The translations under genes were made by a program, and so were the position numbers. Below, one piece after another: positions 3,681 through 63,253 of a DNA stretch of 64,000 bases. The notes under the pieces are model-generated. The model did not search any database, had not been told where the DNA came from, and saw nothing but the letters and a program-made list of their open reading frames with translations. Every line of letters starts with the position of its first letter. The first letter of the stretch is position 1. The stretch is from positions 62,001 to 126,000 of the IMG/VR virus record IMGVR_UViG_3300046694_000196. One strand, 5' to 3'. This DNA is from a virus.

Positions 3681-5844
3681 GGCCTACTCGAGGTGGGACG
3701 ACGGTCTAGGGAGGTACGAGACCTGGTCAGAGGCTGTAGGACGCGTCATGACCATGCACAGGAAGAGGTACGCGCGACAGCTCCGTGAGAGCGACGAGCT
3801 CGGTGAGGCGTTCGCGTCTGCCCAGAGCGCCTACGAAGACAAGCTCGTCCTCGGGGCGCAGAGGGCGCTGCAGTTCGGGGGAGAACAGATCCTCAAGAAC
3901 AACATGAAGATGTACAACTGCACCAGCACGTACGCGGACCGCCCCAGGGCCTTCGGAGAGATCTTCTGGGCACTGCTGTCGGGCTCCGGCGTCGGGTTCA
4001 GCGTCCAGAAACAGCACGTCGACAAGCTGCCCGACGTGGCAGAGCGAAAGAAGCAGCCCAAGATATTCGTCATCGCAGACTCTATCGAGGGCTGGGCCGA
4101 CTCACTGGCCGTGCTCATGTCCTCGTTCTTCGTCGGCGGTGGTACGCACCCCGAGTACGAGGGCAGGAGGGTGTTCTTCGACACCACGAAGATCCGTGAC
4201 AAGAACGCGTTCATCTCGGGGGGCTTCAAGGCGCCCGGCCCCGAACCGCTCAGGAGGGCGCTGGACAAGATCGAGCACCTCCTGCAGGGGCTCGTGCTCC
4301 GCGGAGTCAAGAGGCTCGAGCCCATTCACGTCTACGACGTCATCATGCATGCCTCTGACGCGGTGCTCTCAGGCGGCGTCAGACGCTCGGCCACCCTCTG
4401 CATGTTCTCCCTGGGAGACGAGGCGATGATGTCCGCCAAGACCGGTAACTGGTTCGCGGACAACCCCCAGCGCGCTCGCTCAAACAACTCCGTAGTCCTC
4501 ATTCGAGACCGGATCACGCGTGAGCAGTTCGCGGACGTCATGCAGAAGACCCGCGAGTTCGGAGAGCCGGGTTTCCTCTTCACCGAGAAAGAAGACTTCG
4601 CGTACAACCCGTGCGTCGAGGTGTCTATGCTCCCGTTCGACTTCACTACCGGCGAGTCGGGGTTTCAGGGCTGCAACCTCACTGAGATCAACGGCGGGAA
4701 GATGACCTCGAGGCAGACGTTCCTCGCCGCGTGCGAGGCCGCAGCGGTGCTCGGTACTATCCAGGCCGGGTACACTGACTTCCCCTACATGACTCCCGTT
4801 ACCAAGGCCATCTTCGAGCGAGAGGCCCTCCTGGGAGTCTCTATCACGGGCTGGATGAACAACCCCGAAGTGCTGTTCGACGAGGAGCTCCTCCGAGAGG
4901 GTGCCGAGCTCATCAAGAAGGTGAACCGGAGAGTGGCCGCGCTGCTCAACATCAACCCCGCCGCGCGCAGCACCGTCGTGAAGCCGTCTGGCACTGCCTC
5001 TATCATCCTCGAGACCGAGTCGGGCATACACGGCGGGCATTCCGCCAGGTCGTTCCGCAACGCCCAGATGAACAAGGAGTCCGAGGTAGTCCAGCTCATC
5101 CGTGCACAGAACCCCTACATGGTAGAGGAGTCCGTCTGGTCAGCCAACGGCACTGACTACGTGGTGTCCTTCCCGGTCACCGCTCCCCGAGGCACCGTCT
5201 TCAAGCGAGACTTGCTGGGAGTGAAGCTGCTCGAGAAGATACGCCTGGTACAGAACTCCTGGATCGAGGCCGGCACTGACGTCGACCTGTGCGTAGACCG
5301 CGGCCTGAGGCACAACGTGTCGAACACCGTCGACGTGCCCGCCGACAAGTGGGGCGAGGTCGAGGAGTACCTCTTCGAGAACAGGTCGTCCTTCGCGGGC
5401 GTGTCCCTCCTTCCCGCTACCGGTGACAAGGACTTCGCCCAGGCGCCGTTCACCTCGGTGCTCTCTGAGCAAGAGATACTCGACGCGTACGGCACCGCGT
5501 CTTTCTTCGCTTCGGGGCTCATCGTAGACGCGGCGAAGGTGTTCTCTAACCTGTGGCGTGCGATCGACGTCGTGAAGGACTCATCGCGGCAGACACAGGA
5601 GCGGCTCGACGTGCAGACCGACTGGATACGACGCTTCAAGAAGTTCGCAACTAACTACTTCGAGGGTGACGAGAAGAAGGCCGCGTACTGCCTCAAGGAC
5701 GTAGAGCTCCTGCACAAGTGGGAGAAGATACAGTCGAACTTCAAGGACGTCGACTTTGTGAGTAACCTGTCAGCCAAGAAGTTCACTTCGGTAGACACCA
5801 TGGCAGGCGCGGCCTGCTCGGGCGGAAGCTGCGAGTTGTTCTGA
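3622..5844 (+). CDS. nrdJ: Class II (B12-dependent) ribonucleoside-triphosphate reductase
   Basis: 740 residues, the length of the monomeric adenosylcobalamin-dependent enzyme of Lactobacillus (739). It reduces ribonucleotides to deoxyribonucleotides without oxygen or a separate radical subunit. Visible features are an N-terminal region around NMKMYNCTSTY with the active-site cysteine, the finger-loop region NPCVEVSMLPF with CNLTEIN, the phosphate-binding segment KPSGTAS, and a C-terminal CSGGSCELF cysteine pair that re-reduces the active site. Two glutaredoxin-like genes (7148, 7957) may supply electrons. T4 itself uses a class I enzyme, whereas some rhizobial T4-like phages use class II, so this is a host-type clue. 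Confidence 0.92.
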   Translation: MTQNSTVSTTKLLSEAKFFEAYSRWDDGLGRYETWSEAVGRVMTMHRKRYARQLRESDELGEAFASAQSAYEDKLVLGAQRALQFGGEQILKNNMKMYNCTSTYADRPRAFGEIFWALLSGSGVGFSVQKQHVDKLPDVAERKKQPKIFVIADSIEGWADSLAVLMSSFFVGGGTHPEYEGRRVFFDTTKIRDKNAFISGGFKAPGPEPLRRALDKIEHLLQGLVLRGVKRLEPIHVYDVIMHASDAVLSGGVRRSATLCMFSLGDEAMMSAKTGNWFADNPQRARSNNSVVLIRDRITREQFADVMQKTREFGEPGFLFTEKEDFAYNPCVEVSMLPFDFTTGESGFQGCNLTEINGGKMTSRQTFLAACEAAAVLGTIQAGYTDFPYMTPVTKAIFEREALLGVSITGWMNNPEVLFDEELLREGAELIKKVNRRVAALLNINPAARSTVVKPSGTASIILETESGIHGGHSARSFRNAQMNKESEVVQLIRAQNPYMVEESVWSANGTDYVVSFPVTAPRGTVFKRDLLGVKLLEKIRLVQNSWIEAGTDVDLCVDRGLRHNVSNTVDVPADKWGEVEEYLFENRSSFAGVSLLPATGDKDFAQAPFTSVLSEQEILDAYGTASFFASGLIVDAAKVFSNLWRAIDVVKDSSRQTQERLDVQTDWIRRFKKFATNYFEGDEKKAAYCLKDVELLHKWEKIQSNFKDVDFVSNLSAKKFTSVDTMAGAACSGGSCELF

Positions 5845-26226: not shown

Positions 26227-26236
26227 GAGGAATGAC

Positions 26237-26890
26237 ATGACGCTGCCGAATTTTCGAGTACGCGAAGACATCATCGACGGCCTCGGGCCGTGGCACTGGC
26301 CGATCGAAGACTCGGGCGCATGGGACGGCCCCGTTGATGACTGGGTGACGTCCCACCGGGCTATCATCGAGGCCCTGCCGAACCGTCGCGGGTGCGTCCA
26401 GGCGGGCGGCAACTGCGGCCTCTACCCGGCGCTGCTGTCGAAGATGTTCGAGCGAGTGTACACCCTCGAGCCCGACTCTGACAACTTCAAGTTCCTGACG
26501 CACAACGTCGAGGCGCACTCCGGCGACAACGTCTTCTACCGCGAGGGCGCGGTCGGTGACTCGTCCAAGAAAGTCGGACTGCGCCGGCTGACTCCCCACA
26601 ACGTCGGGATGCACCAGGTAGTGGACGTGCCCGACGGGGACATCGAGATGCACGCCATCGACGACCTGCTGTCCCTAGAGGACGGGCCGATCGACCTGAT
26701 ATGGCTGGACATCGAGGGCGGCGAGTACCTGGCACTGCTGGGCGCCATGGAGACGATCAAGACCTGGCTCCCCGTCATCGGGGTCGAGCGGGCGTCACAG
26801 TCGATACGAGACCTGCTGCGTCCCCTGGGCTACAGGGAGTACGCGGAGTCCAAGATGGACACTTTCTTCAAGATAGGAGACCTGACGTGA
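26237..26890 (+). CDS. FkbM-family methyltransferase
   Basis: 217 residues. SAM-binding motif is GCVQAGGNCGLYPALLSKMF (motif I, about residue 52) with the acidic end of the next strand in VYTLEPDSDNFKFL; later LIWLDIEGGEYLALLGA matches FkbM motif IV. FkbM enzymes O-methylate sugars or other small groups; the phage substrate is unknown and might be a glycan or a DNA-base sugar, given the glycosyltransferase at 8417. AGGAGG ribosome site upstream. Confidence 0.85.
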   Translation: MTLPNFRVREDIIDGLGPWHWPIEDSGAWDGPVDDWVTSHRAIIEALPNRRGCVQAGGNCGLYPALLSKMFERVYTLEPDSDNFKFLTHNVEAHSGDNVFYREGAVGDSSKKVGLRRLTPHNVGMHQVVDVPDGDIEMHAIDDLLSLEDGPIDLIWLDIEGGEYLALLGAMETIKTWLPVIGVERASQSIRDLLRPLGYREYAESKMDTFFKIGDLT

Positions 26891-61126: not shown

Positions 61127-61202
61127 GCAGTCTAAGCTAACCTAGTGGAAGCGCTGGTCTGAAAAGCCAGAGACCTTGGAGCGTAACCAAGAGGCTGCAC
61201 CA
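61127..61202 (+). tRNA. tRNA-Phe(GAA), T-loop AGCGTAA
   Basis: Acceptor GCAGTCT/AGGCTGC, A-CCA encoded, anticodon arm CTGGT-CTGAAAA-GCCAG, T-stem CTTGG/CCAAG but loop AGCGTAA, so both T54 and T55 are replaced. Confidence 0.75.
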
Positions 61203-61288
61203 TGCCCAGTTCGTTTATGTAGTAAGACTCCTCTATAGTCACGTGACGAACGGAGGAAACGTGGGTGCGATACCCGCGACGGGCACCG
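61203..61288 (+). tRNA. Arg(TCT)-like tRNA, rearranged D-arm, C33
   Basis: TGCCC/GGGCA ends, TTCGT pairs with ACGAA after the anticodon hairpin GACT-CCTCTAT-AGTC, T-arm GTGGG-TGCGATA-CCCGC with T55 replaced. Same nesting as 20840, 22785 and 22868. Abuts the Phe tRNA. Confidence 0.5.
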
Positions 61289-61294
61289 TTCTCA

Positions 61295-61423
61295 AGGATA
61301 GAAACAGCAACCAATAAATCAGAGCGAGGCGAAGTGTGGAGTCTACGGACCGTGAAGCACAGCCGCAGATACGGGCTCATACCCGTCGATCTAGGTCCCG
61401 TAAGGATCAACCGCTATCCTGCA
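61295..61423 (+). ncRNA. tRNA-like RNA of 129 nt
   Basis: 7-bp end helix AGGATAG/CTATCCT, a hairpin ACGGG-CTCATA-CCCGT whose loop includes CAT, and a GGC-TGTG/CACA-GCC extension. No normal T-loop. About 50 nt longer than a tRNA. Confidence 0.4.
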
Positions 61424-61431
61424 CTTTCTAG

Positions 61432-61460
61432 TTGACAAGACCGTCGGGACGACATATACT
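61432..61460 (+). promoter_or_regulatory. Promoter of the Ro-like locus
   Basis: TTGACA (61432-61437), 17-base spacer, TATACT (61455-61460). Confidence 0.65.
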
Positions 61461-61466
61461 GACGAT

Positions 61467-61820
61467 AACGAATACAGAGTTACCCGGAAAGCCCCGGGTC
61501 GCTCCTTTCCGAAGCAGGCTTGACGGCACCCAGAGGGTGCACCTTTCCAGAGTGCTCACAGCAACTCAACAATTTCATTGGCGAAAACCCGGGTGACACC
61601 GGAGCACTCTGGAAAGGTCCTAACAGCAGAAACCGCTATGTAAGACCGGAGCCTTCGGGCAACTGCAGGTGCGAGTCCTGCCGACCGTCCCATCCTATGA
61701 CGGTCGTGGCGAAACCAGTAGACGCGCCGGTAGCAAAAGAACGGACCTTGCAGTAACCAGCCTGCGAGTTACATGCCAGATTTCACACGAAACGCGGTGT
61801 AACTCGCAGGCTGGTTCGTC
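61467..61820 (+). ncRNA. Y-RNA-like structured leader of the Ro-like gene
   Basis: About 355 nt. Hairpins: ACCCGG/CCGGGT (61482-61499), GCACCC-AGA-GGGTGC (61526-61540), a perfect 17-bp helix (61541-61557 with 61602-61618), a tRNA-like unit closed by AAGGTCC/GGACCTT (61614-61620 with 61743-61749) that holds a UUCG hairpin, a T-arm-like GCAGG-TGCGAGT-CCTGC (61665-61681) and GACCGTC/GACGGTC, and a perfect 19-bp helix (61755-61773 with 61798-61816) just before the ribosome site. The 17-bp arm and the AAGGTCC strand overlap, so two folds compete. Bacterial Y RNAs are often coded beside Ro genes and carry a tRNA-like module; this is the basis for the call. Confidence 0.6.
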
Positions 61821-61843
61821 TTGAATTGAGAGGGAACATCGAC

Positions 61844-63253
61844 ATGAACGCACTCGCGCAGGCACTCACCCGGGACTCTACCACCACGCTCACCGAGAAC
61901 GGCGACAAGACGTACAGCACGTCCCTGGACGCCTGCGTGGACCTGTTCTTCAAGGTCGGCGCCGTCCGCGGACAGGGCGCCGGCCGTGTCACTTCCCTGT
62001 TCGACGCGGCCTACGCGCAGGACCCCGACCTCGCGTCGAGGATCATGCTCTGGGCACGCGACGTGCGCGGGGGCGCCGGCGAGCGCCAGGTCTTCCGTGA
62101 CGTGCTGGTACACCTTGAGCGCCGCGACCCGACCCGCCTGGCCCGAGTGCTCCCGTCAGTGCCGGCAGTCGGCAGGTGGGACGACCTGTTCGCGCTCACT
62201 TCCGAGGCCGGCAAGACCGCGGCGTACGCCATGTTCGCCTACGCCCTCCACGACGGCCAGGGACTCGCTGCGAAGTGGGCCCCTCGCGAGTCGTCAAAGA
62301 ACCGGGCATTCGCCAAGGGCCTCCGTGAGTTCATGGGACTCACCCCGCGTGACTACCGCAAGATGGTGTCGCGCCTGTCTGACACGGTCGAGCAGAAGAT
62401 GTGCTCCCGCGATTGGTCAGCGATAGAGTTCTCGCGGGTCCCGTCCGTGGCCGCGGCCCGCTACTCGAACGCGTTCCTCAAGAGGCAGCCCGAGCGCTAC
62501 GCGGAGTTCACTGCGGCCGCACTCAGGGGCGAAGAAAAGATCAACGCCGGGGCTCTGTTCCCGTACGACGTCACCAAGTCAAGCGTGGACAGGGCGACCG
62601 CTGACGCACTCTGGGCATCTCTGCCAGATTACGTCCCGGAAGGGGTCTCCTTCCTGCCCGTGGTAGACGTCTCGGGGTCGATGACCTCGATGGTGGGTTC
62701 TTCGGGCGTGTCGTGCCTCGACGTGGCGGTCTCGCTGGGCATCTACCTGGCCGAGCGCAACAAGTCGGCGTTCGAGGGCCTCGGAGTCACGTTCACTTCT
62801 GTACCGACTCTCTTCAGGGTCCCGAAGACCTCCAGCATACGCGACCGAGTGAACTACGTCACGGGCCGGGACTGGGGAATGTCTACGGACCTGGACGCCG
62901 CGATGCAGCTGATAGTCACCACCGCGGTAGAGAACGACGTGCCGGCGAGTGACGTGCCCAAGTTCCTGATAGTCATAAGCGACATGGAGTTCGACTCCGG
63001 CTGTGAACACGGCAAGACGTCAGCGTCTGAGCGCACGAAGTCCTACTTCGAAGCGGCGGGCTACGACGTACCGGGCATCGTCTGGTGGAACGTCGAGTCA
63101 CGGGGAGACACGACCCCTGTCCGCTACGACGAGAGCGGCATGGTGCTGGTGTCGGGCCTCTCGCCCGCAGTAGTAAAGTCAGTGCTGGGCGGGGACGTCA
63201 ACCCGGTCTCGGCCATGCTCAAGACCGTCATGGTGGAGAGATATGACCACTGA
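61844..63253 (+). CDS. Ro60-like (DUF2828/TROVE-vWA) RNA-binding protein
   Basis: 469 residues from ATG 61844 after GAGAGG; an earlier TTG at 61826 is possible. TENGDKTYSTSLDACVDLFF and ARDVRGGAGERQVFRDVLVHL then VGRWDDLFAL fit the DUF2828 helical-repeat region, related to the TROVE ring of Ro60. The C-terminal vWA domain carries the MIDAS DVSGSMTS (about residue 280), DWGMSTDLDAAM, IVISDMEFDSG and IVWWNVESRGDTTPVR. Ro proteins bind Y RNA and misfolded RNA. A structured RNA precedes it on the same transcript. Target RNA unknown. Confidence 0.82.
   Translation: MNALAQALTRDSTTTLTENGDKTYSTSLDACVDLFFKVGAVRGQGAGRVTSLFDAAYAQDPDLASRIMLWARDVRGGAGERQVFRDVLVHLERRDPTRLARVLPSVPAVGRWDDLFALTSEAGKTAAYAMFAYALHDGQGLAAKWAPRESSKNRAFAKGLREFMGLTPRDYRKMVSRLSDTVEQKMCSRDWSAIEFSRVPSVAAARYSNAFLKRQPERYAEFTAAALRGEEKINAGALFPYDVTKSSVDRATADALWASLPDYVPEGVSFLPVVDVSGSMTSMVGSSGVSCLDVAVSLGIYLAERNKSAFEGLGVTFTSVPTLFRVPKTSSIRDRVNYVTGRDWGMSTDLDAAMQLIVTTAVENDVPASDVPKFLIVISDMEFDSGCEHGKTSASERTKSYFEAAGYDVPGIVWWNVESRGDTTPVRYDESGMVLVSGLSPAVVKSVLGGDVNPVSAMLKTVMVERYDH

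What the first reader, a model, noticed from the sequence alone, without database searches (positions are those of the whole stretch)
61432..63253. Phage Ro60-like protein with an upstream tRNA-mimicking structured RNA
A DUF2828/vWA protein related to Ro60 follows a promoter and ~355 nt of structured RNA holding perfect 17- and 19-bp helices and a T-arm-like hairpin with loop TGCGAGT inside a unit closed by a 7-bp acceptor-like helix. Bacterial Y RNAs are coded beside rsr genes and carry tRNA-like modules, so this looks like an independent Ro-Y RNA pair. The mutually exclusive folds (17-bp arm versus acceptor-like helix) could also make a switch for translation of the Ro-like gene.
Basis: partly seen in the sequence, partly recalled or inferred. 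Interest (0 to 1): 0.88.

Follow-up and report, generated by a model that had tools for sequence, protein, structure and literature searches.

The report
Phage Ro60-like protein with Y RNAs
This virus of bacteria carries a gene for a ring-shaped RNA-binding protein related to the human autoantigen Ro60 and, just before it, genes for at least three small partner RNAs of the 'Y RNA' type, one of them built like an inside-out tRNA; the same protein-RNA pairing, with one invariant sequence signature, turns up beside related genes in many bacteria and phages.

Summary
The 61844-63253 gene (phrog_850; Pfam DUF2828+DUF7788) has a Ro60-like fold: all 12 PDB fold hits with E<1e-3 are Ro60/Rsr/TROVE structures. 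The region before it encodes three Y-RNA-like elements sharing one signature: a perfect 7-bp stem, two bases, ACAGCA(A), a variable interior, then the stem's other strand. They lie at 61295-61420 (Y1, before the promoter), 61549-61610 (Y2, inside the 17-bp helix) and 61614-61749 (Y3). Y3 encloses a circularly permuted tRNA-like module (T-arm, acceptor closed by a loop, D-arm), the layout of bacterial YrlA RNA; Rfam's YrlA model finds the same module in the closest relatives. A translation switch is not supported: related elements often lie downstream of the gene. The element recurs beside 16 of 27 phage and 60 of 80 prokaryotic DUF2828 genes (160 elements, 159 sense strand; control hexamers about 3), with exact spacing, but not beside TROVE genes of 8 genomes. 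Ro-Y RNA pairs, also in phages, are known; this signature class on the DUF2828 lineage, absent from Rfam, appears to be a new variant. RNA binding is untested.

The parts
61295..61420 (+). Y1: Y-RNA-like element; 7-bp stem AGGATAG/CTATCCT, 2 nt, ACAGCAAC; interior conserved in L002
   Evidence: L002 counterpart with 2 of 7 pairs changed on both sides; 82% identity over 57 nt of the interior
61432..61460 (+). Promoter TTGACA-17-TATACT between Y1 and Y2; expected start near 61467
   Evidence: -35 and -10 conserved in L002
61477..61540 (+). Conserved structured 5' part of the leader: hairpin 61477-61504, GGCTTGACGGC, hairpin 61527-61540
   Evidence: 74% identity to L002 over 231 nt; folds in both with differing stem letters; role unknown
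61541..61618 (+). Y2: Y-RNA-like hairpin; 17-bp stem, signature core 61549-61610 (AGAGTGC TC ACAGCAAC ... GCACTCT)
   Evidence: best hit in 64 kb of a model trained only on bacterial elements (21.4 bits, E 0.0035); stem kept in L002
61614..61749 (+). Y3: Y-RNA-like element with tRNA-like module; basal stem AAGGTCC/GGACCTT, 2 nt, ACAGCAG
   Evidence: 5' half, E 0.51; L002 counterpart at 4861-4982 with 2 of 7 basal pairs changed on both sides
61665..61725 (+). Permuted tRNA-like module in Y3: T-arm 61665-61681 (loop TGCGAGT), acceptor-like helix 61682-61689/61699-61706, D-arm-like 61709-61725
   Evidence: single hit in window; constrained fold -43.2 vs free -45.5 kcal/mol (the free fold covers 4 nt more); L002 counterpart hit by Rfam YrlA RF02553; 3 of 7 acceptor pairs changed on both sides
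61755..61816 (+). 19-bp perfect hairpin without the ACAGCAA signature; not in L002; role unknown
61844..63253 (+). Ro60-like protein, 469 aa (phrog_850; DUF2828 + DUF7788); start ATG with GAGAGGGA before it

Best explanation
The locus encodes a Ro60-type ribonucleoprotein of the phage: a ring-plus-vWA protein of the DUF2828/DUF7788 lineage and at least three cognate Y-RNA-like noncoding RNAs encoded next to it in the same direction. In each RNA the 7-bp basal stem followed by two bases and ACAGCAA is, by inference, the docking site for the Ro-like ring; the rest is an effector part. In Y3 that part is a circularly permuted tRNA-like module, as in bacterial YrlA. The likeliest action, by analogy with Deinococcus Rsr-Y RNA-PNPase, is that the Y RNAs hold or gate the ring and bring a partner (a nuclease or a tRNA-handling enzyme) to RNAs during infection, i.e. 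RNA quality control, decay or repair. Shown: fold relationship, the RNA elements, their conservation and their association with the gene family. Inferred: binding, processing out of the transcript, and function.
For: Protein: the AlphaFold model (pLDDT 74, pTM 0.67) has only Ro60/TROVE/Rsr structures among its 12 PDB hits with E<1e-3, including Thermus phage phiLo Ro60 (4.6e-9), 2i91 (TM 0.63) and D. radiodurans Rsr; MIDAS-type DxSxS, T and D are invariant in the family. RNA: three stem+2 nt+ACAGCA elements before the gene; only one other in the 126-kb record. In 13 phage records the elements cluster by the Ro-like gene in 12. Across 27 phage loci: 44 elements near the gene, all sense, in 16 loci; anagram controls about 0.7. 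Across 80 prokaryotic loci: 160 elements in 60, 159 sense; controls about 2.7; gap 2 gives 160, gaps 3-6 give 6-10. A model built only from bacterial elements finds Y2 as top hit in the window, and in whole bacterial genomes 9 of 10 hits with E<0.03 lie at the DUF7788 locus. tRNA-like module: Rfam YrlA finds it in L001/L002 and beside Ro-like genes of Sinorhizobium, Mycobacterium, Vibrio and Campylobacter phages.
Against: No sequence match to Pfam TROVE, and vWA_Ro60 only below cut-off. The window's own Y3 is not found by Rfam YrlA; its T-loop (TGCGAGT) and D-loop (no GG) are degenerate. No phage relative exceeds the YrlA gathering score. 11 of 27 phage and 20 of 80 prokaryotic loci showed no perfect element near the gene, and in Cronobacter phage GAP32 the elements lie 200 kb away in a tRNA array. 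No expression or binding data for this phage.
Confidence: 0.82

Rival explanations
1. The leader is a cis-acting switch or autoregulatory 5' UTR of the Ro-like gene: the protein binds its own leader, or two folds compete, to set translation.
For: The Y2/Y3 region is co-oriented with the gene and probably shares its transcript from the promoter at 61432; the Y2 and Y3 helices overlap by 5 nt.
Against: In FelixO1-like, mycobacterial and staphylococcal phages the elements lie downstream of the gene; in GAP32 they are 200 kb away. The predicted fold leaves the ribosome-binding site largely unpaired. Bacterial loci carry several copies up to about 800 nt upstream.
Confidence: 0.1
2. The tRNA-like module is a true circularly permuted tRNA gene, spliced or processed into a working tRNA.
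For: Order T-arm, acceptor 3' strand, loop, acceptor 5' strand, D-arm; in the window and L002 the acceptor loop starts with or contains CCA.
Against: Other members lack CCA in that loop, no anticodon can be read because the ends run into the basal stem, and the ACAGCAA stem is shared with elements lacking any tRNA part.
Confidence: 0.05
3. Decayed tRNA pseudogenes and chance hairpins in a tRNA array.
For: The region ends a long tRNA array; Y3's T- and D-loops are degenerate.
Against: Stems kept through paired changes between window and L002; register-exact signature across bacteria and phages against anagram controls.
Confidence: 0.03

Closest known systems
Bacterial Rsr-YrlA/YrlB (Salmonella rsr-yrlBA-rtcBA; Deinococcus Rsr-Y RNA-PNPase 'RYPER')
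   Same: Ro60-fold protein; RNAs encoded beside it; stem closed by the RNA ends; permuted tRNA-like module in one RNA (PMC8394870, PMC7790460)
   Different: Protein is DUF2828/DUF7788, not detectable as TROVE by sequence; RNAs carry stem-NN-ACAGCAA, whereas the Rfam YrlA consensus has AUGC after the stem; below the YrlA gathering score
Phage Ro-like proteins and Y RNAs (Chen et al. 2014, cited in PMC12282133; mycobacteriophage 'Ro-like RNA binding protein')
   Same: Same idea, and for mycobacteriophages Crossroads and MsGreen the same protein family and RNA signature
   Different: Whether the 2014 study saw this signature or the bacterial DUF2828 loci could not be checked (paper not held)
Listeria phage CKA15 CKA15_055 and its abundant upstream RNAs (PMC12282133)
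   Same: Ro sixty-related protein by HHpred, found in virions; authors proposed Y RNAs upstream; relatives cka14/16/17 carry three signature elements just upstream of the family's gene
   Different: The abundant region named there (26,236-26,727) lies about 1 kb further upstream than the signature elements, if coordinates transfer
Thermus phage phiLo Ro60 (PDB 9l5y)
   Same: Phage-encoded Ro60 fold, second-best structural match
   Different: Its RNA partners were not examined here

Membership tests
Ro60/Rsr (TROVE ring + vWA) | Alpha-helical ring fused to a vWA domain | tested here: met
   All 12 PDB fold hits with E<1e-3 are Ro60/Rsr/TROVE, over the full length; model moderately confident
Ro60/Rsr (TROVE ring + vWA) | Sequence match to Pfam TROVE (PF05731) | tested here: not met
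   No TROVE hit at E<=1 in any of 9 members; vWA_Ro60 below cut-off in the window protein
Ro60/Rsr (TROVE ring + vWA) | MIDAS metal-site residues in the vWA domain | tested here: met
   D275, S277, S279, T348 and D380 invariant in 9 members
Ro60/Rsr (TROVE ring + vWA) | Binds Y RNA and misfolded RNA | not testable with these tools
   Needs pull-down or gel shift
YrlA-type bacterial Y RNA (RF02553) | Stem formed by the 5' and 3' ends | tested here: met
   7-bp stems of Y1-Y3, 17 bp for Y2
YrlA-type bacterial Y RNA (RF02553) | tRNA-like module with T-, acceptor- and D-arms | tested here: met
   Y3, degenerate loops; canonical loops in L002 and other phages
YrlA-type bacterial Y RNA (RF02553) | Score above Rfam's gathering threshold | tested here: not met
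   Best relative 44.7 of 69 bits; L002 24.5; window Y3 not listed
YrlA-type bacterial Y RNA (RF02553) | Encoded beside a Ro60-type gene | tested here: met
   Elements 95 to 424 nt upstream of the gene
YrlA-type bacterial Y RNA (RF02553) | tRNA-type modification; binding to PNPase | not testable with these tools
   Needs RNA mass spectrometry and binding assays; U55 of the T-loop is G in Y3
ACAGCAA-type Y-like RNA of DUF2828/DUF7788 genes (proposed here) | 7-bp stem, exactly 2 nt, ACAGCA, near the gene on the sense strand | tested here: met
   Three in the window; class supported
Permuted tRNA gene | Readable anticodon and conserved CCA in the intervening loop | tested here: not met
   No anticodon loop; CCA missing in that loop of MsGreen, Crossroads and phiM12

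The most novel reading that the evidence does not exclude
DUF2828/DUF7788 proteins are a second, separate lineage of Ro60-type proteins that uses its own class of Y RNAs, marked by a 7-bp stem, two bases and ACAGCAA. The pair occurs in gut Firmicutes, Synergistes and other bacteria and in many large phages, and the protein at least also in giant viruses; this class has not been described as such.
Probability: 0.5. Interest if true: 0.76.

Novelty: new variant of a known kind. Interest (0 to 1): 0.63.

Why it matters
It gives a testable biochemical role to two 'domains of unknown function' found in hundreds of phages and many bacteria: they would be Ro60-type proteins with their own RNA partners. 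A short invariant signature lets anyone find the RNAs from sequence, which Rfam cannot do now. Why large phages keep a Ro-Y RNA complex inside their tRNA arrays, sometimes near RNA ligases, bears on the open questions of what bacterial Y RNAs do and how phages protect, repair or degrade RNA during infection.

Tried and rejected
Pattern search of viral contigs with the 16-nt arm of Y2 gave nine chance matches; only L015 matters, a 217-kb contig whose tRNA array holds three signature elements. Rfam on the window leader: no family above threshold, only chance microRNA-like matches to long hairpins. Aligning hairpins of different lengths misplaced the 3' stems, so the model was built from bacterial elements of 52-55 nt. 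Equating the abundant Listeria CKA15 RNAs with these elements: rejected as unproven because coordinates differ. Mycobacteriophage Bxz1 as a TROVE-type comparison: record not in the collection; 8 proteobacterial genomes with TROVE hits were used instead and showed no stem-flanked ACAGCA within the DNA held, about 1.5 kb each side, a small sample. One automated covariation count for Y2 was off by one base and was redone. The high anagram control (CAGCAA, 78) is the true motif shifted by one base. Rfam YrlA at E<=1 also rings in 13 of 14 control genomes, so only strong hits, or hits at independently predicted places, were used.

Full report
The window is bases 62001-126000 of a 126-kb virus record, with a dense tRNA array: 23 tRNA genes by ARAGORN, and further ones by Rfam. 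The finding lies at the end of that array.

Observation. The leader 61467-61843 folds at -157.2 kcal/mol, 6.6 standard deviations below dinucleotide shuffles. The nearest relatives, IMG/VR contigs L001 and L002 (protein 68% identical), keep the array, the promoter's two hexamers and most of the leader (74% identity over 231 nt).

Protein. The 469-aa product matches Pfam DUF7788 and DUF2828 and PHROG 850 'RNA-binding protein'; 681 phage records hold a homologue. Pfam TROVE is not matched by sequence. The predicted structure matches Ro60, Rsr and TROVE structures as its only PDB hits with E<1e-3. Others already call family members Ro-like: mycobacteriophage records, Ochrobactrum phage OC by HHpred to 2NVO, and Listeria phage CKA15 (PMC12282133).

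The RNA elements. Reading L002 beside the window showed a T-arm, an acceptor helix closed by a short loop, and a D-arm, in that order: a circularly permuted tRNA-like module, as in YrlA. A detector for this order finds it once in the window (61665-61725). Rfam's YrlA model independently marks the same module in L001/L002 (24.5 bits; E 9e-5 in G002) and modules beside the Ro-like genes of phages phiN3, phiM12, MsGreen, Crossroads, BUCT194 and CPX. Reading those loci showed a recurring ACAGCAA. A systematic scan then found a uniform element: a perfect 7-bp stem, exactly two bases, ACAGCA, a variable interior (mostly 30-120 nt), and the second stem strand. The window has three: Y1 61295-61420, Y2 61549-61610 (the core of the 17-bp helix) and Y3 61614-61749, which encloses the tRNA-like module.

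Is it chance? In 13 phage records the elements cluster beside the Ro-like gene in 12; elsewhere their number is about that of 59 anagram hexamers. The exception, GAP32, has a cluster of about eight in its tRNA array, 200 kb from the gene. Over 27 phage loci there are 44 elements near the gene, all on the sense strand, in 16 loci. A scan of GTDB genomes gave 80 prokaryotic loci of the family: 60 have elements within 1.5 kb, 160 in all, 159 sense and 156 upstream; anagrams average about 3; gap 2 gives 160 against 6-10 for gaps 3-6. The perfect pairing of the stems follows from the search rule; the anagram, gap, strand and position contrasts do not. A covariance model from 19 bacterial elements has Y2 (E 0.0035) and Y3's 5' half (E 0.51) as its only hits with E<=10 in 64 kb, and recovers many phage elements. 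In six whole bacterial genomes, 9 of 10 hits with E<0.03 lie at the DUF7788 locus; two of those genomes (G316, G317) did not contribute to the model. Between the window and L002 the Y1 and Y3 basal stems each have two pairs changed on both sides, the acceptor helix three, and the Y2 stem one (plus two one-sided changes and one break).

How it probably works. Shown: a Ro60-type fold and a family of RNAs that travels with it. Inferred: the stem-NN-ACAGCAA part docks on the ring, the interior is an effector, and Y3 mimics tRNA. In Deinococcus, Y RNA tethers Rsr to PNPase (PMC7790460, PMC8394870), so RNA decay or quality control during infection is the leading idea; a decoy for tRNA-cutting nucleases is another, proposed for YrlA in PMC7790460. 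Some homologues sit near RNA ligases (XbC2; GAP32; LMTA-34). The Listeria CKA15 homologue is found in virions, so delivery with the phage is possible.

Rivals. A translation switch is disfavoured because elements often lie downstream or far away. A permuted tRNA gene is disfavoured because no anticodon can be read and CCA is not conserved. Chance or decay is made very unlikely by the controls.

Novelty. Ro-Y RNA pairs in bacteria and phages are known. The signature, its exact register, its link to DUF2828/DUF7788 genes across bacteria and phages, and its absence from the TROVE loci of eight genomes tested were not found in the papers or families available here. The key 2014 paper could not be read, so priority is uncertain.

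Noticed in passing
window 61127-61749: Three neighbouring T-loops (tRNA 61127, tRNA-like 61204-61290, and Y3) have G instead of U at position 55, while the 26 other tRNA T-loops examined have U; in L002 the matching tRNA-Phe loop has U.
   Followed up: partly
window 61204-61290: A tRNA-like sequence (TGCCC...GGGCA, T-loop TGCGATA) that neither ARAGORN nor Rfam calls.
   Followed up: no
window 61755-61816: Perfect 19-bp hairpin just before the ribosome-binding site; no ACAGCAA, absent from the nearest relative; perhaps a degenerate fourth Y-like element or an RNase III site.
   Followed up: partly
window 61477-61540 and L002 4713-4780: Conserved structured RNA between the promoter and Y2: hairpin whose loop AAAGCC could pair with downstream GGCTT (possible pseudoknot), then a second covarying hairpin; no Rfam match.
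   Followed up: partly
L002 4176-4258: Another 17-bp hairpin between tRNA genes with AGCAGCAA in place of ACAGCAA, perhaps a further Y-like element.
   Followed up: no
L015 1576-4959: A 217-kb viral contig with three stem-flanked ACAGCAA elements in a tRNA array and a 21-nt match to Y2's 3' arm; whether it encodes a Ro-like protein was not checked.
   Followed up: partly
GAP32 (NC_019401.1) 306435-311927: About eight signature elements in the tRNA array, 200 kb from the phage's Ro-like gene.
   Followed up: partly
G014 C5:54267-54321: Strong model hit (E 2.2e-5) 44 kb from the bacterium's DUF7788 gene on the same contig.
   Followed up: no
BFVD fold hits: Giant viruses (Pithovirus, Marseillevirus, Cafeteria roenbergensis virus) carry DUF2828/DUF7788 proteins of the same fold; whether they have Y-like RNAs is open.
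   Followed up: no
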